A DNA stretch of 64,000 nucleotides from Ditylenchus dipsaci (lineage: Eukaryota; Nematoda; Chromadorea; Rhabditida; Anguinidae): the NCBI GenBank assembly GCA_004194705.1, contig SADC01000048.1:222752-286751 (forward strand), read 5' to 3'. Below, piece by piece: positions 12,303 through 43,593 of this stretch; position 1 is the stretch's first letter; each line of letters begins with the position of its first letter. The notes beneath the pieces are model-generated. The model was given only the letters and a program-made list of their open reading frames with translations. It did no database searches and was not told the origin of the DNA. A program made the position numbers and the translations under genes.

Positions 12303-13283
12303 TATCTCAATAGAAACCATAATTTCAGGGCTACATCATGGTGTTAAAACTTTTTGAAAAAGATGAAAATTTGACGCTACTTGTATTATACAAGTAGCAT
12401 TCTTGCAGACGAAGCGACGGCTTCAGCAACAGGCTGCCGGTCACTTCTTAGACTGACGGCGCTTTCGTTCATGATCTGGAAAATATGCGGTAACCACAAG
12501 TAAGACGTAATGTCTACCGCTTACTCCAGTAAAAAAGCTTACGACGCATTCGCTTCTTACGCCATTTGGCTTGCATATTTTCAAAGACCAGAAAGCGGGG
12601 ACAGAGCGAAGAGCTTGAATTTCCAAGAACTGACTTGATAACTAAAAAATAAGACTTATTGGTAGATCTTAAATCATGAAGAAGAAGCAGGTTGAAACTA
12701 ATTAAAGGAATTCAAAGAGAGCAGTATTCAGACCATCAAAATAAAAAATAAAAGAGTAGGCGATCAGGAAATACCACCGAAATGATATTGGAAGTACTGG
12801 AGTAGGGCTCAGATGACCATTACTGATAAGAGGAACATTGATGAGAATAATTGTTGTGAAAAAATTTAACTATAATTGCAAATAATTGAGAACGAGTTGA
12901 ATCGCAAGAAAGAAAAAGCAATTTGAATCGCCATTTTTGAATCGCAGCAATTTGAATCGTGATCAAAATGCGATTCAAATTCAAATGACTGCGATTCACG
13001 TGAATCGCGGCTTTTTGACTCACGACGTTTTTGAATCGCGATTCACGTGAATCGCAGTCATTTGAATTTGAATCGCATTATGAGCAGAAACAGTTTTTTG
13101 GCCGCTGATTCAAAAAATGCTCAAAAATTCATATTGCCAACACTGCTTGTATATACCCCCCCCCAAATCAACTTTTTTTTCAAAAGTGTTTTAAAACACC
13201 CTATATCGACTCAAAATCGCCTCAGGAGTTCAAAAAAGACATTATTTTTGAGTTTGGTTAATAAAAAATTGAGTTTTGGACAC
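12303..13283. repeat. no gene; GATTCACGTGAATC word cluster at 12930-13080
   Basis: 12303-12930 holds nothing I recognise. 12930-13080 is a foldback built from GCGATTCACGTGAATCGC words, with the same left and right arms TTTGAATTTGAATCGCAT in inverted orientation. Confidence 0.55.
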
Positions 13284-13291
13284 TTTTAAAT

Positions 13292-15404
13292 GGTTCATCC
13301 TCCTTTCCGCACACTCCTTTCCGCAAACTCTTTTCCGCAAAACTCCTTTCGCAAAACTCCTTTCCGCAAACTCTTTCCGCAAAACGCCTTTCCGCAAAAC
13401 TCCTTTCCGCAAACCTCTTTTCCGCAAATTTTTATAAATAAGAGTTTTGGTCAATATTTGTTTTAAATTATTTCAATTTTCCTTTTCGTTGTTTCTCAAA
13501 ATGGTACTGGGTGAAATGGGTTCCTGTTTTTGTCTATGTTTTTGCTCTTGCGTGTGCTTTTTCTCTTATGTCAAAATTTTTTGGTATTAACTGTATTTTT
13601 ATAGATAATGGCGTCAATGAGTAAAACGAGCAAAGGAAATGTGCTAGTGATGTGTAACGGTTATGAAATGCGCAAAAGCCTATTCAAATTCTGTAAAGAC
13701 AGTTCAGAACTGGCGTTGCGTTAGAATCTGTGGTGGAAGAGCAACCTCCAAATATGGCTCAACTGAGGATCTGATGCAAAAAAAGTCGCACACGTGTCGG
13801 AGAAGTCAAAGCAATTTCCAGGCATGTTATATTCTTTATTATTTCTCATGTAACGCATTTTTTAGTTACGTCAAGGCATCGTGCAAGTGAAAGAAGATGC
13901 AGTGCGAACTATTGGAATGAGGTCTGGTCTCATCGTGGAAGCTGCCAAATCTAATCTCTCGGATGAACAGCTGATATTTTTGCTTTCTGATCTCTACCTA
14001 CAGCAGATGGTTCAGAAAATACGCAAACCAATTGGAGCATCGAGTGTTGACAAGCCAGTGGACGAAATTGCCTGGATTGATTGCTTTAAGAACACGAAGC
14101 AAGGTCATAGGTTTTTATTGCACGATTCAAGGTAGTTTTTTACATCACTTATTGTGTGTACACGTTTTTCATAACTACTCAGCCAAATGAGCCAGTGATT
14201 TTTGCGTTCCTTTCCGAAATGGGTATTGGTCTTCTTCTTCTTTTATGAGAAAGAAGCTATTATTATTTTAGGTGTATGCTTTCGATACCCTCTTCTACTC
14301 TCAATTGAAACAGAAAGGGCCAAAGAAGGTATTTCACTGGACAAATAATGTTGATCTATTCGAATTCGATCTTCTGCTTCTTCCAATTCACTCCCTGGGT
14401 CATTGGTCATTAGTGGTATGCTTTAGCGAATCGATACATGGCTTGTAACGTAATTTTTATTGTAGGTTATCAACGTTGAAGAGGGCATGATCAGCTATTA
14501 TGACTCACTGCACGAGGATGGCAATCCACATTTAGATTTGACAAGGCACGAGTTTTTTCAGATGCTACTAATCCAGGCCTATTTTTGTAGGGAGTTTCTG
14601 CAGAAATACGCGATAGAAAGATGCTTCACTGAAGTAGATTTGATGCAATGGCTTGTTTTTAGCCCAAAGTATGGTCTATTCTTTCTAGATATGTAGACTA
14701 GTTACAATTTTAGAATATTCCTGCGCAGAACAACACCTTTGATTGCGGAGTATTCGTCTGCCGATTTGCCGAAAGTGTTTGTCATCGTGAAAAGTTTAAT
14801 TTCTCTCAGGCCGAAATGGAAGAGGCTCGAAAGAACATGGTCAAAGAAATTACCGCCGGAAAATTACTAGAAATTTTCAATGTCTTTTGCCTATTGTTGC
14901 TTTATTTATGCGTGTTATTGAATGTTGATTTATTTGAACGAAATAAAGCTCACCGGAACACAGATGCAAAACCCTTTTTTCACAGTGTATGTTACATGAC
15001 TATCACACAGAAAAATATAATCAAAATATTTTAACAAGCGAATTAAAATTTATCTTACGTCACTTTTTTCACAGAAAGTTTCAAAAACTTCATTGTGAAG
15101 ATACCCGTTTAAAGGAGGGACGAAAATAAGACACACCCACCCCACCCTCAGGTTTACTCGTTCCATAAAGAAGGGTAAATTTACCGCAGGAAGAAATTTA
15201 CCGCGGGGAACTTCTAGAAGCCCCAATTACACCCAGTACCATTTTGAGAAACAACGAAAAGAAAAACTGAAATAATTTAAAACAAATATTGACCAAAACT
15301 CTTATTTGCTCTTATCTTAAAAATTTGCGGAAAGGAGTTTTGCGGAAAGGAGTTTGCGGGAAGGAGTGTGCGGAAAAGGATTTTTGCGGAAAGGAGGGTG
15401 AACC
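13292..15404. mobile_element. 2.1-kb TIR element carrying a SUMO-protease gene, 8-bp target duplication
   Basis: The ends are GGTTCATCCTCCTTTCCGC and its complement GCGGAAAGGAGGGTGAACC. A perfect direct duplication TTTTAAAT lies on both sides (13284-13291 and 15405-15412). Each terminal repeat has subterminal tandem TCCTTTCCGCAAAAC units followed by about 90 bases of close inverted identity ending at CCCAGTACCATTTTGAG (right) and its complement (left), so the inverted repeats are about 180-225 bp. The interior holds the Ulp1/C48 gene, with no transposase seen. An 8-bp duplication fits hAT, Zisupton or some Mutator-like groups; the ends do not show the hAT TAGGGTTG/CAGGG form. Superfamily unassigned. 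Confidence 0.85.
13608..15034 (+). pseudogene. Ulp1/SENP-type cysteine protease gene (C48) with FLYWCH-like N-terminus, frame-broken
   Basis: Exons can be placed at 13608-13821, 13866-14131, 14272-14415, 14466-14668 and 14714-15034. The C48 catalytic parts are all present: VYAFDTLFYSQL, GHWSLVV (His at 14401), YYDS (Asp at 14502), AQNNTFDCGVFVC (Gln at 14726, Cys at 14744), and the helix FSQAEMEEARKNM near the end. Ulp1/SENP proteases mature SUMO or remove it from targets. The N-terminal part reads NGYEMRKS and, after a one-base frame change, NWRCVRICGGRATS and KKSHTC, which resembles a FLYWCH zinc finger. The usual WLND block before VYAFDT is not found. Phases disagree at the second and fourth introns, a stop follows residue 39, and the first intron needs a GC donor. 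This may be decay or base-call errors. The gene sits wholly inside the inverted-repeat element. Confidence 0.75.
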
Positions 15405-15412
15405 TTTTAAAT

Positions 15413-16129: not shown

Positions 16130-17016
16130 ATTTTTTCGAAAAAATGCTTTTTTGTCCTGCAAAGTCATGCATTTAATTTGTATATGTTACAGCAATAATC
16201 TTCGCCATGAAATTATGTGCAATCTGATCACTTGATGCAAAATTAGTCATAAATTAAAATGTGATATATTGTCGCTTAAGGTTGGACAAAAATGCGAAAC
16301 TTAGGAAAATGGCCATTTTTTACCACTTTTTTCATATTCATTTGTCCTGTAGCGGCTTTTTAATCCGATAAGGTGATGGTGCAATCTTATTTTTGTTTGA
16401 ACTAGAGCATATCAGCTATTCAATGGTATATCATTTGTAAAGAAAGGACGGTACTTTTTTCTGCCCCCAAATTACTTTTTCTGCCCCAATTTTTTTTATA
16501 TTTTGTTTATTTATTTATGTTTTTATCTGAAAATGGAAATTTGTTCGAGTCATCCAACGCAAAATCAAAAAGTAGTTAAAGGTCATCTGTATCAGAATTT
16601 TGACTTCAGGTGAAAAATTTTGAGTTATAGACTATTTTATGTTTTGAAAAATGCCCCCTAATTTTTTGGGCAAATCTTTTTCTTGCCGTAAAAATACTTT
16701 TTTTTGCCGCAAAAGGTTTTGCCGCAGAAATACTTTTTGTTGCCGTAATAATACTTTTTTTCTGCCGTAAAAAACTTCTTGTTGCCGCAGAAAAACTTTT
16801 TTCTGCCGCTAAATTACTTTTTTCTGCCGCAACGCATATTTTCGACTTAGTCCTATCTCGATTATAGGCTATATCTTGGCAACTAAGCAATAATAACAGC
16901 AAAAATCCTTACAGTCAAAATTGGATTCAACGAAACCTTGAAACCTAGATGATCTAGGCTAGATCGTAAAAATTGTCTCGGAACCAGAAAAGAGCCAAAA
17001 AAATTAGATTTTTATC
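16130..17016. repeat. no gene; TGCCGCAGAAATACTTTTT tandem units at 16680-16830
   Basis: 16680-16830 carries about seven imperfect units of 20-27 bp containing TGCCGY...ACTTTTT. A related array with GCAGCAAAAAAGTATTTT lies at 23030-23150. The rest is unremarkable. Confidence 0.55.
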
Positions 17017-17125: not shown

Positions 17126-17865
17126 ATTTTTTAGTATCCAGGTGTTTCGGGTAACATCTAGATGGTTTGGGCACTATCCAGGTGATTTGGTACCATACCG
17201 GCTCAAGCAGGAATCACTTCCCGCTTGAGCCATGCTTTTCCTTACACTACTGGTCTCCTTTTTATGTCGAAGGTTCGACTCCAGCTGATACATTTTCATT
17301 ATTTTTTTTTCTGCGATATCTTCTTCATTTTTATGCTGATATCTTTTGAATGTTTTTATTTTACAAGTATAATAATTGCTTTCTTCATAGAAATTTTATG
17401 CAATTATGGTCGGACAAATATCACAATCGCCACTAACCATCTTTATATAGTATTTGGACTGTGTCTGTACGGATTTTGAATTCCCGCCAAATATTTTTTT
17501 CGGTCTATTCTGGCCTTTTTACCCCAAATTTTTGGCGGTGGTCAGCTCCGCATTTGTTGCGATGCACAACTACAGTTCCTAAGCTTTCGAATGAGCCTAA
17601 ACTTGCCCTACGGTGTGTAGCCGTTGGAGCTGTGAGCATGTCACAAACTTCATAATCTGAGGATTTTTGCCTATTTTTGGCTATATTTGAATTCCTTTCG
17701 AGACCAAGTGGCAGTATACGGGTCTAATTCATTGTCAAATCATTTGTTGTGGCTTATTTTTCATTTTGCATTTTTGGGTGCAGATATAATTTTTGCTGTT
17801 TTTGTAGATGGTGTTCAATTTTTCTCTCACTATTTATGACTCATTTTAGAATTTCAAGTGGTCGT
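17126..17865. other. no gene recognised upstream of the minisatellite
   Basis: A short hairpin GGCTCAAGCAGG...CCCGCTTGAGCC lies at 17200-17230. Open stretches at 17167-17660 have no recognisable domain. Confidence 0.3.
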
Positions 17866-20025
17866 CTACAAGCAGTGCCTCCAATTGTTCGTCTACATAC
17901 AGTGCCTTCAAGTGGTGGTCTACATACAGCGCTTCCAAGTGGTCGTCTACACCAGTGCCTCAAGTGGTCGTTACAAGCAGTGCCTCTAAGTGGTCGTCTA
18001 CACCAGTGCCTCAAGTGGTCGTCTACACCAGTGCCTTCAAGTGGTCGTCTTTATACAGTGCTTCTAATTTAATTATTTTTTGGTTTTGAGTACGTTTCTG
18101 TGGTCAATAAAATTGGTTGGTGCAGATTCGCCCTTTTTTAGAAAGTTTCCATTTGGTGTTAGGTATCAAGTGTCTTCATTCAACTTCAGCATCAAGTTCC
18201 AAGGTACGCTTTTTATTTTGCTGTTGATTTATGTTGTTGCTTATCTATATTTTATCAGGTTTCATTCCCTCGCTCTGAAGTGGTCGTTGCCTTAGGGTTG
18301 TCGGCCTACATTGTTATTCTACAGGTGGTCGTCTACAAACACTGCGCTCCAAGTTGGTCGTCTATAAGCAGTGCCTCTAAGTGGTCATCTAGAACCAGTC
18401 TTTATCCATATTCTTATCAGGTCAACTTCTCCGCGTTCTAAAGTTGTCGTTGCCTTCAGGCTGTCGTCTACAAGTGGTCGTTCTACAACAGTGCTTCAAG
18501 TCGTTGTTCTTCATTCCAGTGCGCCTTCAAGTGGTCGTCAACATCCAGTGCGCTTTCAAGTGGTCGTCTACATGCAGGCCTCCGGAAGTGGTCGTCTACA
18601 TACAGTGCGCCTTCAAGTGGTCGTCTAAGACAGTGCCTCAGTGGGTCTACATGCAGTCTATCAAGTAGTCGTCTACACAGTGCTCAAGTGCGTCTACATA
18701 CAGTGCCTCCAATGGTCGTCTTATGCATGCCCAAGTCGTCGTCTACACCAGTGCCTCAAGTGGTTCGTCTTTATACAGTGCCTTAAATTATCATTTTTGA
18801 TTTATGCGTACGTTTGTGTGGTCAATAAAATTGTTTGGGTGCAGATTCGCCCTTTGAAGGTTTTCAGTGATCTTCGGTCTCAAGTGGTCTTTCATCAACT
18901 TCGACATTAGATTCCAAGGTACGCTTTTTTGCTGTTGATTTAATATGGCTTTATCTTTTCTTATCAGGATTCAAGTTCTCCTCGCTCTGAAGTGGTCGTT
19001 GCTTTAGGTTTGTCGTCTACATGTCATGCCTACAAGTGGTCGTCTACATGCAGTGCTCAAGTGGTGGTCTACATCCAGTGCTCTAAGTGGTCTTCTACAT
19101 GCAGTGCCTCCAAGTGGTCGTCTACATAGAGTGTTCTAAATCTAATTGTTTTGATGTATTTGTACTTTTGCAAAGTGGTCAATAAATTGTTCGGGTGCAG
19201 ATGCCCTTTTTAGAGCTTTCCCATTGGTGTTCGGTATCAAATGGTCTCTCATCACATTCAGCATCAGTTCCAAGGTAGGCTTTTTATTTTGCTGTTGATT
19301 TATTGCGGATTTATTTTTTTCTTATCAGGTTCAACTTCTCTTCGCTCTAAAGTGGTCGTTGCCTCAGGTTGTCGTCTATATCTTACCGAAGTGGTCGTCT
19401 ACAACTGCGCCTCCAAGTGGTCGCCTACACCAGTGCCTCAAGTGGCGTCTACAACAGTGCCTCAGTGGTTGTCTACATCCAGTGCGCCTACAAGTGGTCA
19501 TCTACATTCAGTGCGCTTCAAGTGGTCGACTACATGCAGTGCTCTAATGGTCGACTACATGCAGTGCTCTAAGTGGTCGTACATGCAGTGCCTCCAAGTG
19601 GCCGTCTACATCAGTGCCTCCAAGTGGTCATCTACATCAAGTGCCTCTAGATCTAATTATTTTTAATGTATTCGTACTTTTGCAATGTGGTCAATAAATT
19701 TGTTTGGGTGCAGATACGCCCTTTTCGGAAGGTTTCTATCAGTGCTCGGTATCAAGTGGTCTTTCATCAACTTCGAAATCAAGATTCAAGTACGCTTTTT
19801 ATTTTGTCGTTGATTTATTGTGGCTTTATCTACTTCTTATCAGAATTCAAGTTCCTCTCGCTCTGAAGTGGTCGTTGCCCTAGGTGTCGTCTACACCTTT
19901 TGCCTCAAAGTGGTCGTCTACAAACAGTGCGCTCCAAGTGGTCGTCTACATACACTGCGCCTCCAAGTGGTCGTCTACATGCAGTGCGCCTCAAGTGGTT
20001 GTCTACATATTTGGTGTCTGTAAAG
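17866..20025 (+). repeat. 27-bp minisatellite in intron-bearing cassettes
   Basis: The basic unit is about 27 bp, AAGTGGTCGTCTAC followed by ATACAGTGCCTCC, with many one-base indels. It is arranged in larger cassettes marked by GGTGCAGATNCGCCC at about 18120, 18839, 19195, 19708 and 20080 (spacings about 719, 356, 513, 372). After each mark except the last comes TATCAAGTGGTCTTTCATC, then a GT...AG block such as 18204-18258 (55 bp, GTACGCTTTTTATTTTGC to TTATCAG), then GCTCTGAAGTGGTCGTTGC and a new run of 27-bp units; after the fifth mark only GTATCTAA follows. All three forward frames of the unit are open because 27 is divisible by 3, so long open frames here are not evidence for protein. A stray fragment lies at 22445-22495. 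Confidence 0.85.
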
Positions 20026-20229: not shown

Positions 20230-22234
20230 ATATGGTGCACAGTGCTGCGAAAAATTGGCGGGGAAATGCTTTAACTGTCACGGCGAAGATCACTACATTG
20301 GAAACTGTGAACAAGCTTGCGTACTTTGCAAATATCATCTTCCAGAAACTGCAAATGCGATCGCGAGATTTTTGGATGACTATGGCCGCCCATTCTTTCT
20401 ACTCGGAAAATGGCAGCTCTTCTCTTTGAAAATCTTTTGACGCATTGCACAAGGTTATATTTTCTTAATTTTTTGTTGTAACTGCTCAATTTTTTATAGA
20501 ATTGAGGAAATGCAAGAATTTTTGCCTGAAGACGAACCGAAAATCAGTTGGCGGCCCCAATCTGGTGCAGATACGCCAGGAGGGGCAGTCAGCTAATCTT
20601 CAGCTTCAAAACCGGTAAGGCTTCACAAAATCATATATTGTTTTTAGTTTTTTTAGTTTTTTGAACTTTAGGGCTCTGATGAAGTGTTCGATGAAGAAGA
20701 AATTGAATGGCTTGACGCTCCTGCTCCTAAAATAGTTCATGATGATCGGAGCATGTGAAAAGTCAAGAATTTAATGATATCAAGTTAGTTTTTAAAAAAG
20801 CCTTTTGTAACAAAAACTATTTTTACGCTTTATATCCAGGCTTCGAGAGATCTGTTTTGAGCTGCAAGATTTCTTCCAAGTTGTCGCTCAGAAGAGCCTT
20901 GAACGCCAAACAACACTTCTTCAAGGATTAGACGACTTTCTTGAAAGGCTCAGACGCGTCTTCGTCGACCTAATTTGGATTTGGAACTGTAAGACGAAAT
21001 ATTATCAAAATATATATTTCATTCAAAAATTCAGGTACGGATCTTTTGTCAACGGGTTCTCATCAATCACAAGTGATCTTGACATATCAATCAAAGGTTG
21101 CCCTGACGTAAGTTACCCTATTTTTGTAGAATTTTTTAAAAATTTATTCAGTTTAGATTAATCCAGAAAATAAGGCTCAGTGTCACACGTTTTTGAAGGA
21201 CCGCAATTTGGCCGAGGATCTCCACGTTGCGTTCAGCACTACACGGAAAATTACGGCTATGTTAGAAAAGAAGGAAGCGAGTTCTCACAAGTTCATTAAA
21301 ACTCCGAGATGGGTCTAAGGTTAATATAGAGTAAGCATTTTTCAAAAATTTTTTTAAATTTGCAAAAAAATTTAGTGTTGCGTTGATAATGGTCTGGCTG
21401 TAGCCAACTCAAGGCTAATTGCAGCGTATTCGAAATTCGAAAATTTCAGAACCAGTGCTTTTGGTAAATTTCTGTCTTTTATCACAAATTTTACTATTTC
21501 ATTTCAGCTGTCAAGTGGCTGGCCAAAAAACTCAATATTTGCGACGCATCCAGGGATCTCTTCGGCTTATTCGTACATCATCATGGCGGTCGCTTCAGCT
21601 CAAAAAAGTGGCTTTTTACCGTTTTTGCAAGAAGATGCCGAGTTGACTCCTTCATATATTGGTGTATGCAACATCGCTTTCGTGGTGCAGACTCGCCACG
21701 GGGTGAAGGCAGGACACGCTGGGGAAATCGTGAGTTTTTCTACATATTTTATACGGTTTTAATCAGACTAGCTTTAAGTTTGTCCACTTCTTCCAATGCT
21801 ACTACGACTACTTTCACAAAAAGAAGAACCGTAATCAGGAAGAAGTCATACAGATAAGAACGAAAAATTCCAATCAAGGCCATCGACGTAAACATGGGCA
21901 AAATGTGAATATCCAGGACCCCTTCGAGCTAAAGCGAAACCTAGGAGATACTTGCAACACCGTAAGTTAATTTTTTATTTTGATGATCGCATATATAATT
22001 TTATCTTAGACTTTTCGCGAGTGAAGGACTTTTTCAAATACGGCTTGAGGTATCTTCGAAAATGCGAGGTTAGCCTTTTTTCCATGTTCAAAAAATCAAA
22101 AAAAAATTCAGAAGTTTTCGTTAGAAGAGATGTATGAAACATAAACCACAGAGCGACACGAATTGCTTCTTGAGCGCCTTTTGAAGAAACGCAAGATGGG
22201 TCTGTTTGATGTCCGAAACGAAAATAATCAGTAG
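20230..22234 (+). pseudogene. decayed TUTase / non-canonical poly(A) polymerase gene with CCHC zinc knuckle
   Basis: Exons, each with GT-AG borders: A 20230-20453, B 20500-20614, C 20672-20782, D 20840-20988, E 21035-21107, F 21157-21320, G 21376-21463, H 21508-21729, I 21772-21961, J 22010-22068, K 22112-22234. Exon A has a CCHC knuckle, CFNCHGEDHYIGNC. Exon E has the nucleotidyltransferase motif YGSFVNGFSSITSDLDI (GS plus the DxD metal pair). Exon G has VDNGLAVANSRLIAAY, H has VKWLAKKL and AYSYIIMAV, and I has the PAP-associated helix and IQDPFELKRNLGDT. These are the order and motifs of the TUT4/TUT7/CID-1 class, which adds U or A to RNA 3' ends. Frame changes occur in exons A, C, D, F and H, there is a TAA in exon B, and TAA occurs in exon K before the final TAG. 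Either a pseudogene or poor base calling; the intact DM gene nearby favours decay. Confidence 0.75.
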
Positions 22235-22299: not shown

Positions 22300-23578
22300 C
22301 CAAAATCGTGAATAGGAAAATAGAAACGGTTACTCTAATATCAAAAATCAAAAAAAGGTCAAGGAAAAATAAAAGGGTCGATTAACCCCAATAAGTTCTG
22401 AAAAGTTTAAAATTAAGACAGGCGCCAGAGGCGCCAGTTAAGCTATAAGCAGTGCCTCTAAGTGGTCGTAGAACAGTGCCTCAAGTGGTCGAGAGAATAA
22501 CGCCATTATCGGCCTTAGATGTATGTATTGTCGTTCTTTTCTCAAAATATAAGTTTTAAAAAAGGCGCCAGAGGCGCCAGTCAAGCTAGTAATACCTATA
22601 TTCAGCTAAATTTCTTGATATTATCTACCGTATTCTCTCTATTATTTCCACATGTGGGATTATTTTTCAATCAACCGAAAATCGGAAAAATTTAGGGTCG
22701 ATCTCGAGATTTTTGGGTGCTCAACCAAAATCTAAAAAGTGGAATTAAAAGAGTTCGTGGGAATTAAGAAAACGCAAGCATTAAGAATTTATTAAGAATT
22801 TATTCAGAAACTTTTTAAAGCCACTTCAATTTTACAATTTGATGCTCAAAAGGGAGCTTAGATGTTGAATTTTAGGGTTCAGGTAAGATACCCGGCATGA
22901 GTTCACAAAAACTGGCCGAAAATTGGACTTTAACAGAAAGTGGCGACAGACAGACACATGCCAAATACTATCTAGAGATTTATAGTGAAAATGCTGCGAA
23001 GAAGGCATGTGAAGCAAAACAATATTTGCAGCAAAAAGTATTTTAGCAGCAAAAAAGTATTTTAGCAGCAAAAAGAAGTCTTTTTGCAGCAGACAAAATT
23101 AGCAGCAAAAAAAGTCCTTTGGGAGAAAAAAGTATTTTTGCAGCAAGGAAAATCTCTGCCCATTATAAAAAATAAATGAGAAGTTTTTTCGAAACATGGT
23201 GTAAGCAAAAGTAAAAATAATCACATGCACAGAAATTTAAATTTTTTCGAGTCAGGCAAACATTTTTGTAATTTTACAACAAAAGAAATTTGCATGCAAT
23301 AAATTTTTGTGCTACTTTTGACTGAAATAATAACAATAATAATAGTCATATATCTTTCTATTAAAATATTCGTATTTCAAGCATCTAATCCACAAAGAAA
23401 ATTTCATATAGAATTTTCCATGTAAACATGTTTTTGAAATTATTTTGTATTGTTTTCTTTGATTTTAATGTCAAAGTTTCATGAAGAATAAATAAACAAT
23501 CATTAAGAAATTCAGCAAATTCATGTTTTGAAAATAAAAGTCTCATAAAAGTCCAATTTTGCCCAGGGATCGATTTTG
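22300..23578. other. no gene; GGCGCCAGAGGCGCCAG pair and GCAGCAAAAAAGTATTTT array
   Basis: AGGCGCCAGAGGCGCCAG occurs at about 22421 and 22564, bracketing a stray minisatellite fragment. 23030-23150 holds units of GCAGCAAAAA(G)TATTTT. No exon was recognised. Confidence 0.5.
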
Positions 23579-24797
23579 AATTGTGAATAACCGTTTTCAA
23601 ATTTCTTTGACATATATACAGTCGAGTCTTGATTGGGGTTGGGTGATGGGAATATTCCCGGTATATTCCCGGTCCGAATCTTAGATTCGGACCACCAATG
23701 GAAAATCGGTCCGAATCTTTTCGAAAATAAACATTTTAACTGGAGTGAAAAATCCTACGTGATCCAAAATCGCCCAATATCATCTTTTTTCAAAGTTTCA
23801 GCACCTGAAATCTTGCTTAAAACATGTTTTAAGTGGCGGTTGACACTTTTTGACAAAAAAATATTTTGACCAAAAATTTTTGAATTGTGAATAACCGTTT
23901 TCAAATTTTCTTTGACATATATACAGTCGAGTCTTGATTGGGGTTGGGTGATGGGAATATTCCCGGTATATTCCCGTCCGAATCTTAGATTCGGACCACC
24001 AATGGAAAATCGTCCGAATCTTTTCGAAAATAAACATTTTAACTGGAGTGAAAATCCCTACGTGATCCAAAATCGCCCAATATCATCTTTTTTCAAAGTT
24101 TCAGCACCTGAAATCTTGCTTAAAACATGTTTTTAAGTGGCGTTGACACTTTTTGACAAAAAAAATATTTTGACCAAAAATTTTTTGAATTGTGAATAAC
24201 CGTTTTCAAATTTTCTTTGACATATATACAGTCGAGTCTTGATTGGGTTGGGTGATGGGAATATTCCCGGTATATTCCCGGTCCGAATCTTAGATTCGGA
24301 CCACCAATGGAAAATCGGTCCGAATCTTTTCGAAAATAAACATTTTAACTGGAGTGAAAATCCCTACGTGATCCAAAATCGCCCAATATCATCTTTTTTC
24401 AAAGTTTCAGCACCTGAAATCTTGCTTAAAACATGTTTTTAAGTGGCGGTTGACACTTTTGACAAAAAAAATATTTTGACCAAAAATTTTTGAATTGTGA
24501 ATAACCGTTTTCAAATTTCTTTGACATATATACAGTCGAGTCTTGATTGGGGTTGGGTGATGGGAATATTCCCGGTATATTCCCGGTCCGAATCTTAGAT
24601 TCGGACCACCAATGGAAAATCGGTCCGAATCTTTTCGAAAATAAACATTTTAACTGGAGTGAAAAATCCCTACGTGATCCAAAATCGCCCAATATCATCT
24701 TTTTTCAAAGTTTCAGCACCTGAAATCTTGCTTAAACATGTTTTTAAGTGGCGGTTGACACTTTTTGACAAAAAAAAAATATTTTGACCAAAAATTG
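23579..24797. repeat. four tandem 305-bp repeats
   Basis: Units begin AATTGTGAATAACCGTTTTC at 23579, 23883, 24188 and 24493, spacing 304-305 bp. Copies differ almost only by homopolymer length. Each unit contains GGGTTGGGTGATGGGAATAT, the GGGAATATTCCCGG word and an inverted GGTCCGAATC...GATTCGGACC pair, so the tandem unit has swallowed a member of the hAT-like word family. Open frames repeated in each unit are a consequence of the repetition. Confidence 0.95.
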
Positions 24798-42946: not shown

Positions 42947-43593
42947 CAGTCGACTCCCGATTTAGTGTACACCCAATTTAGTGTACACCTCGGTTCAGTG
43001 CACACCTGGACTCAATCATTTTGGCCGGCGGTTAATCAAAATGGACAATACTTTTTTCTCCGCCTAATTTACTTTTTTTCCGCCTAATTTCTTTTTTTCC
43101 GCCTAATTTTAACTTTGTTTTTATTTCGGCATTTTTCTCTTAATTTTTATGCTAATTTTTGAAAGTTTTAGTATTGTCGTGTAGCCCAGGATCTCATCTT
43201 TCCAACAAGCCATTAAGCTTTATCAGATAATTAAGAAATGTGGAGATTGAGGGGTTTTAATAAAATAAATTTTATTTTTATTTTATTTTTGAAACCTCTA
43301 AAAGTCTACCTTTCTAAAATCCTTCAATGAAGTTTTATAGCTTTTTGGAAAGCTGAGATCCTGGGATTCACGATAATGCTAAAACTTTAAAAAATTAGCA
43401 AAAGATTAACAGAAAATGCCGACATAAAATTAGGCGGAAAAAAAGAAATTAGGCGGAAAAAAAAGTAAATTAGGCGGAGAAAAAGTATTGTCCAATCAAA
43501 ATGACTAGAATGAACACTCAATTTAGTGTGCACTCGATTTAGTGTACACCTGGAGCCGGTCCCCAGGGTGTGCACTGAACCGAAAGTCGACTT
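42947..43593. mobile_element. 647-bp pogo-type element with nested CCGCCTAATTT foldback
   Basis: Outer end CAGTCGACTCCCGATTTAGT, right end mirrored (ACCGAAAGTCGACTT) with TA flanks. Sub-terminal TTTAGTGTACACC words. Inside, 43035-43500, is a second foldback with TTTCCGCCTAATTT triplets on the left and AAATTAGGCGGAAA on the right. Confidence 0.75.

What the first reader, a model, noticed from the sequence alone, without database searches (positions are those of the whole stretch)
13284..15412. SUMO-protease gene packaged in a 2.1-kb inverted-repeat element with a perfect 8-bp target duplication
Seen: inverted ends GGTTCATCC.../...GGGTGAACC, identical TTTTAAAT on both sides, and inside them all C48 catalytic motifs (His, Asp, Gln, Cys) plus a FLYWCH-like module. 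Known: Ulp1 domains ride on some plant Mutator-like elements, and FLYWCH fingers occur with Mutator-like transposases. Inferred: this is a mobile unit that carries its own desumoylating enzyme, possibly fused to the element's DNA-binding finger. I know of no described nematode element of this type, but could not search.
Basis: partly seen in the sequence, partly recalled or inferred. Interest (0 to 1): 0.88.

Follow-up and report, generated by a model that had tools for sequence, protein, structure and literature searches.

The report
Cut-down transposon with SUMO-protease-fused transposase gene
This is a shortened, probably dead copy of a nematode jumping gene whose longer relatives encode, one after the other, a DNA-binding finger, a Mutator-type transposase and a SUMO-removing protease, so the protease looks like part of the transposon's own gene and not stray cargo.

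Summary
A 2113-bp element (13292-15404) with inverted ends is flanked by TTTTAAAT. It sits inside a high-copy repeat: the 40 best matches to the joined flanks run straight across the junction, and the 3 I read have the 8-bp site once. Its left end matches the genome 52 times, in about 40 separate stretches.

The interpretation needs changing. Two 3.4-kb copies hold 1361 and 1375 bp more at one point, encoding a MULE transposase core between the FLYWCH-like finger and the C48 protease. The window copy is an internal-deletion derivative of a FLYWCH-MULE-C48 Mutator element, not a capture. Its frame is disturbed, and its family shows no codon bias (19/19/17): probably non-autonomous.

MULE lies just upstream of C48, same strand, at 25 places counted by eye, though most loci seen lack the partner. 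The C48 is SENP1/2-like.

Ulp1-bearing MULEs are known from plants, hydra and lancelet; my searches found no nematode case in print. Host: probably Ditylenchus dipsaci (inferred).

The parts
13284..13291 (.). left target-site duplication TTTTAAAT
   Evidence: sequence; three unoccupied relatives of the site have this 8-bp slot once, reading TTTTGAAT, TTTTGAAT and TTTTGTAT
13292..15404 (+). the element: internally deleted derivative of a FLYWCH-MULE-C48 Mutator-like element
13292..13520 (+). left terminal inverted repeat: terminus GGTTCATCC, 14-15-bp tandem units 13300-13428, inner arm 13436-13520
13605..13815 (+). FLYWCH-like finger coding region (frame disturbed in this copy)
   Evidence: family composite reading: PF04500 E 6.6e-4 over profile 2-61/62, below curated cut-off; alignment with 12 copies
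13866..14135 (+). coding region between the finger and the (missing) MULE core
   Evidence: open frame of 89 aa, no Pfam hit; present also in the long copies L015, L019
14237..14240 (.). deletion point: long copies L015/L019 have 1361/1375 bp more here, encoding the MULE core and a stretch that I read as the start of C48
14272..14418 (+). C48 exon with catalytic His (14401-14403)
   Evidence: PF02902 E 1.8e-6; SENP1 alignment
14466..14675 (+). C48 exon with catalytic Asp (14502-14504); 3' end approximate
   Evidence: SENP1 alignment; on its own no Pfam hit
14714..14880 (+). C48 exon with Gln (14726-14728) and nucleophile Cys (14744-14746); 3' end approximate
   Evidence: PF02902 E 2.4e-8; SENP1 alignment; 150 matches listed in the genome, itself included, from 391 candidates of which 150 were scored
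15223..15404 (-). right terminal inverted repeat: inner arm 15223-15307, tandem units 15324-15400, terminus GGGTGAACC
15405..15412 (.). right target-site duplication TTTTAAAT
   Evidence: sequence

Best explanation
The locus is a non-autonomous, internally deleted copy of a Mutator-like (MULE) DNA transposon with foldback-type inverted ends. The longer form encodes, in this order on one strand, a FLYWCH-like finger, a DDE MULE transposase core and a SENP/Ulp1-type SUMO protease, most likely as one protein. Shown: inverted ends, 8-bp duplication, unoccupied sites, many copies, two long copies with the MULE core between finger and protease, and MULE upstream of C48 at 25 places. Inferred: that the three parts are translated as one protein, that the finger binds the terminal repeats, that the DDE core cuts and joins, that short copies like this one move in trans, and that the protease strips SUMO from proteins at the transposition complex or at silenced element chromatin.
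For: Unoccupied sites: the joined flanks (160+160 bp) match across the junction in all 40 places scored of 3633 candidates, 92-96% identity; in 3 of 3 that I read, the 8-bp slot is present once. Ends: 52 matches. Of 17 loci with both ends seen (window included) 12 have a perfect duplication, 8 bp in 11 and 9 bp in one (L015); 5 are imperfect; 4 further fetched loci showed one end only (read by eye; L009 and L011 look like one duplicated insertion). Long copies L015 and L019 hold 1361 and 1375 bp more at window 14237-14240, with DGTYFCS, DFELAPVN and TNNHMEGWH stretches. Composite reading: FLYWCH 6.6e-4, MULE 7.9e-4, C48 2.9e-28, in that order, the first two below the curated cut-offs; best protein matches are FLYWCH-MULE proteins P0011 (5.1e-29) and P0012 (5.4e-20). 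MULE upstream of C48 on the same strand: 12 of 115 MULE matches and 13 of 150 matches of the window lineage's MULE exon, no overlap between the two sets. Second family (C517): MULE 7.2e-9, C48 3.6e-26, SENP1 7.3e-40, inverted tandem-unit ends.
Against: In the window family FLYWCH and MULE stay below Pfam's curated cut-offs, and single pieces gave no FLYWCH or MULE hit. Both long copies have frame breaks, so no uninterrupted FLYWCH-MULE-C48 frame was seen in this family; some breaks may be long-read assembly errors. No transcript was available. Of the 30 best C48 loci (+/-1.5 kb) only 8 have a MULE match, and of the 30 best MULE loci only 2 have C48. The C517 reading has no Pfam FLYWCH hit, and no matching target duplication was visible for it. 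P0005, a D. dipsaci protein that by eye joins finger-, MULE- and C48-like stretches, has no Pfam hit.
Confidence: 0.9

Rival explanations
1. Gene capture: a small inverted-repeat element picked up a host SUMO-protease gene as cargo.
For: The window copy alone shows C48 but no transposase; gene capture by MULEs is reported in plants (review PMC13317346, passages seen).
Against: Long copies have the MULE core in the middle, and MULE stands upstream of C48 at 25 places. The event in the window is a deletion, not a gain. In some ancestor the C48 domain must still have been gained.
Confidence: 0.06
2. A domesticated host gene: the protease at this locus is kept by the nematode for its own use and the inverted repeats are incidental.
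For: All four catalytic positions are still present in the window copy.
Against: Copies differ equally at the three codon positions (19/19/17); the frame is disturbed; the element is an insertion into a repeat.
Confidence: 0.02
3. Fragment of a Polinton/Maverick or Ginger element, which also carry cysteine-protease genes.
For: Ginger1 transposases carry Ulp1 or OTU domains (PMC2836005, passages seen); the Polinton protease is recalled.
Against: 8-bp duplications in most copies, copies of 3.4 kb or less among those compared, and a MULE-type core with a FLYWCH-like finger; Ginger2 elements make 4-bp duplications.
Confidence: 0.01

Closest known systems
Tm1 (Meloidogyne), Phantom-type Mutator/Foldback elements (PMC3169594; passages seen)
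   Same: nematode host, composite inverted ends with internal repeats, FLYWCH + MULE transposase, 8-10-bp duplications, many elements without transposase
   Different: 0 occurrences of Ulp, C48 or SUMO in the main text; most common duplication 9 bp, here 8 bp
Plant Ulp1-carrying MULEs (Kaonashi/KIU, Vandal; review PMC13317346, passages seen)
   Same: MULE that carries an Ulp1-type protease domain
   Different: the Arabidopsis ones are non-TIR and carry Ulp1 in one of three genes; here long inverted ends, and C48 follows the MULE core
Ulp1-encoding MuDR elements of hydra and lancelet (named in PMC2836005, passages seen; the Repbase reports were not seen)
   Same: animal Mutator elements with an Ulp1 domain
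   Different: their architecture was not available to me; no nematode is named in that list
Ginger1 transposases with C-terminal Ulp1 or OTU (PMC2836005, passages seen)
   Same: transposase with a C-terminal Ulp1-type domain: a parallel arrangement
   Different: Gypsy-integrase-like DDE core, not MULE
FLYWCH-MULE proteins of Galendromus (P0003), Globodera rostochiensis (P0004) and unnamed sources (P0001, P0011)
   Same: finger and transposase core homologous: P0001, P0003, P0004 to the C517 reading (1.7e-78, 1.7e-65, 1.2e-61), P0011 to the window-family reading (5.1e-29)
   Different: no C48 among their listed Pfam domains; P0001 ends where the nematode reading goes on towards C48

Membership tests
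Mutator-like elements (MULE), Phantom type | MULE DDE transposase domain (PF10551) in long copies | tested here: met
   window copy lacks it; composite reading of long copies E 7.9e-4 over profile 2-99/99, below the curated cut-off; second family C517 7.2e-9, above it; homology to FLYWCH-MULE P0011 5.1e-29
Mutator-like elements (MULE), Phantom type | N-terminal FLYWCH finger | tested here: inconclusive
   E 6.6e-4 over profile 2-61/62, below the curated cut-off in the window family; no Pfam hit in the C517 reading
Mutator-like elements (MULE), Phantom type | 8-10-bp target duplications | tested here: met
   12 of 17 loci perfect, 11 of them 8 bp and one 9 bp; 5 imperfect
Mutator-like elements (MULE), Phantom type | falls in the Phantom clade of a transposase tree | not tested
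   no Phantom reference alignment at hand
Foldback-type ends (as in Tm1) | composite inverted ends built of short tandem units, variable between copies | tested here: met
Ulp1/SENP SUMO proteases (Peptidase C48) | His-Asp-Cys triad plus Gln in the right order, with sequence similarity to SENP | tested here: met
   SENP1 alignment 1.3e-26 for the window exons, 7.3e-40 for C517
Ulp1/SENP SUMO proteases (Peptidase C48) | complete catalytic domain | tested here: not met
   window exons match the profile from position 30 and the family composite from position 25 of 217; C517 covers 2-205
Ulp1/SENP SUMO proteases (Peptidase C48) | SUMO-cleaving activity | not testable with these tools
   needs an assay
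Kaonashi/KIU non-TIR MULEs | no terminal inverted repeats, separate Ulp1 gene | tested here: not met
   long inverted ends; C48 follows the MULE core in L015/L019
Polinton/Maverick | large element with polymerase B and integrase, 6-bp duplication (recalled) | tested here: not met
   size and duplication differ: copies compared are 3.4 kb or less, duplications mostly 8 bp; polymerase and integrase were not searched for

The most novel reading that the evidence does not exclude
A nematode lineage of Mutator transposons carries a SENP1-type SUMO protease fused to its transposase as an anti-silencing tool: it would remove SUMO from the HDAC1/Argonaute silencing machinery that nematodes use in the germline, which would help explain why its Cys exon now has at least 150 matches in this genome.
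Probability: 0.2. Interest if true: 0.85.

Novelty: new variant of a known kind. Interest (0 to 1): 0.5.

Why it matters
Ulp1/OTU-type domains have joined transposase genes repeatedly (plant MULEs, Ginger1), yet their role in transposition is unknown. A nematode genome with several MULE-C48 families, beside MULE loci where no C48 was seen nearby, is a natural comparison. Argonaute-directed transcriptional silencing in C. elegans requires SUMOylation of HDA-1 (PMC8131101, abstract seen), so a transposon-borne deSUMOylase suggests a testable counter-silencing role. It also warns annotators that C48 'genes' in such genomes may be transposon parts.

Tried and rejected
Gene capture was set aside because the long copies carry the MULE core. 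A C48 tree (29 rows including 3 outgroups, FastTree on 101 aligned positions) does not group elements by MULE type, but support is poor; whether C48 was gained once or several times stays open. dN/dS was taken only from pairs with at least 30 codons and dS 0.15-1.2, stop codons dropped; pairs are few and not independent (L047 and L052 are duplicates): Cys exon 10 pairs, median 0.30, range 0.13-0.49; His exon 14 pairs, median 0.43, range 0.31-0.83; MULE 8 pairs, median 0.08, range 0.03-0.31, mostly from loci without C48 in view. A first codon-position count was spoiled by misaligned deletion copies and was redone on copies that hold each exon, 8 to 11 of 13 rows. Pfam on single pieces found no FLYWCH or MULE in the window family. 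The C517 finger gave no credible PDB match (best E 0.29). The last protein search (C48 region; 726 candidates) gave only P0006 (D. dipsaci), a Heterostelium protein and an unnamed one at E <= 1e-15, so no other MULE-C48 fusion showed there, but its sensitivity is limited. tRNA and Rfam scans of the window found nothing.

Full report
What is there. The window lies in a 227-Mb, 1359-contig genome without a name. At 13284-15412 a 2113-bp element is flanked by TTTTAAAT on both sides. Its ends are GGTTCATCC.../...GGGTGAACC, with 19 of the terminal 20 bases matching as inverted repeats. The ends are composite: ~14-15-bp CTCCTTTCCGCAAA tandem units outside, an 85-nt arm pair of 95% complementarity inside.

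Mobility. The left end gives 52 matches in the genome, by my count about 40 separate stretches on 23 contigs, the window's own two ends included; it is a lower bound, as 40 of 69 candidates were scored. I fetched 20 regions. Both ends are seen in 17 loci (16 of these 20, plus the window); 4 showed one end only. Of the 17, 12 have a perfect target duplication (11 of 8 bp; L015 shows 9 bp with an altered right terminus) and 5 an imperfect one (L010, L016, L018, L021, L025); this is read by eye, and L009 and L011 look like one duplicated insertion. The duplicated sequences differ from site to site. The window flanks belong to a high-copy repeat: the joined flanks match across the junction in all 40 places scored of 3633 candidates, 92-96% identity. 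I read three of those places: each has the 8-bp slot once, as TTTTGAAT, TTTTGAAT and TTTTGTAT. These are paralogous unoccupied sites, so the insertion and its 8-bp duplication are shown; the slot letters differ by one or two from the window's TTTTAAAT.

What it encodes. Two of the three C48 exons pass Pfam alone, and the joined exons match SENP1 at 1.3e-26 with His, Asp, Gln and Cys aligned. Within the window element I found no transposase. But copies L015 and L019 (3.4 kb) continue, at the window's 14237-14240, into 1361 and 1375 extra bases that encode DGTYFCS, DFELAPVN, CLFHLSKN and TNNHMEGWH stretches, which I read from my own knowledge as a MULE core, and after that a stretch that I read by eye as the start of C48; Pfam does not recognise this last part (the composite C48 match begins at profile position 25). 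A composite reading gives FLYWCH (6.6e-4), MULE (7.9e-4) and C48 (2.9e-28) in that order, the first two below the curated cut-offs, and its only protein matches at E <= 1e-4 are two FLYWCH-MULE proteins. The other short copies compared have eight other internal junctions, one of them shared by L009, L011, L012, L014 and L021 and one by L018 and L023 (read by eye). The window copy is therefore one of several kinds of deletion derivative.

Is the window copy working? Probably not. It has a frame break in the finger region that none of the 12 aligned copies shares, and a disturbed junction before the Gln/Cys exon that it shares with one of them, L018. Across copies, variable columns fall evenly over codon positions (19/19/17), as expected for neutral decay. 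If, as I infer, the assembly is the PacBio/CANU one of D. dipsaci, single-base breaks may partly be sequencing errors.

The genome-wide setting. PF02902 has 157 matches and PF10551 115 in this genome, both with 150 candidates scored. By eye, 12 of the 115 MULE matches have a listed C48 match within 2 kb downstream on the same strand (C517, C84, C328, C1216, C8 twice, C883, C364, C266, C1156, C882, C1177); by my rough estimate chance would give about 0.1, and I saw no pair in the opposite order in those lists. With the window lineage's own MULE exon as query (150 listed of 317 candidates), 13 have C48 about 1.0-1.5 kb downstream on the same strand (C1104, C1274, C1252 twice, C414, C1248 twice, C1105, C80, C1331, C431, C837, C1250); two of these are L015 and L019. 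In one search, 8 of the 30 best C48 loci and 2 of the 30 best MULE loci had the other domain within the held 1.5 kb; all 10 had the same order and strand. So most C48 loci and most MULE loci looked at have no partner in view.

A second family. C517 (L089+L029) has tandem-unit inverted ends, a MULE domain (7.2e-9) and a nearly full C48 domain (3.6e-26, profile 2-205 of 217; SENP1 7.3e-40). The context of its third acidic residue (TNNYAE, my splicing) differs from that of the window lineage (TNNHMEGWH), so two MULE lineages carry C48. No target duplication was visible for C517, and Pfam sees no FLYWCH in its reading. The C48 tree does not settle whether C48 was gained once. Between families the Cys exon shows dN/dS 0.13-0.49 (10 dependent pairs) and the His exon 0.31-0.83 (14 pairs), which suggests selection for the protease while the elements were active.

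Host. P0005 and P0006, both from Ditylenchus dipsaci, are among the 10 proteins matching the C517 reading. In the stretches it covers, P0006 repeats the C517 reading almost letter for letter by eye, though the His and Cys exons are missing from it. P0005 by eye joins finger-, MULE- and C48-like stretches in one predicted protein, but Pfam finds nothing in it. The D. dipsaci draft is 227,234,012 bp in 1,394 scaffolds, GC 37.5% (PMC6929663, passages). The identification is an inference.

Known relatives. Tm1 of Meloidogyne is a Phantom-type FLYWCH-MULE with foldback-like ends and no mention of Ulp, C48 or SUMO (passages). A 2019 MULE survey has 0 occurrences of Ulp, C48, SUMO or protease. Ulp1 in MULEs is reported for plants, hydra and lancelet. 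Searches for a nematode case gave none: 0 papers; 0 papers; 27 papers with three of four terms, 20 listed; none of the listed titles names one; 7 not seen. A survey of transposons in plant-parasitic nematodes has 0 occurrences of Ulp1 or C48. Repbase was not available, so a Repbase-only nematode entry is possible.

Mechanism. Shown: element, insertion, deletion derivative, domain order. Inferred: translation as one protein, FLYWCH binding the ends, MULE doing cut-and-paste, short copies moving in trans, C48 removing SUMO. The bold reading is that the protease counters SUMO-dependent Argonaute silencing (HDA-1 SUMOylation, PMC8131101, abstract). Nothing here tests it.

Noticed in passing
window 43034-43502: 451-bp foldback element (43043-43493) with CCGCCTAATTT tandem-unit inverted ends and a perfect 9-bp duplication AATCAAAAT: another MULE-like short element.
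   Followed up: partly
window 16667-16832 and 23046-23162: Tandem-unit arrays (TTTTGCCGCAA type) in opposite orientation 6.3-6.4 kb apart, possibly ends of a larger foldback element; no matching duplication seen; between them a weak nucleotidyltransferase-like fragment (20811-21161, PF22600 E 0.0022, below cut-off).
   Followed up: partly
window 12960-13086: Inverted repeat with 50-nt arms, 96% complementary, just left of the element; the element's flanks belong to a repeat with 3633 candidate places in the first look.
   Followed up: partly
window 23574-24796: 305-bp unit tandemly repeated 4 times at 97%.
   Followed up: no
window 17854-20009: Clusters of a ~27-bp minisatellite AAGTGGTCGTCTACA...CAGTGCCTCC.
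   Followed up: no
P0006 (D. dipsaci protein): Annotated protein joins a transposon C48 fragment to an LSM14/FDF protein: a chimaeric gene model or a real exonisation.
   Followed up: no
L018 and L023: What looks like the same insertion on two contigs (C86, C1137), probably two haplotypes of a heterozygous assembly.
   Followed up: no
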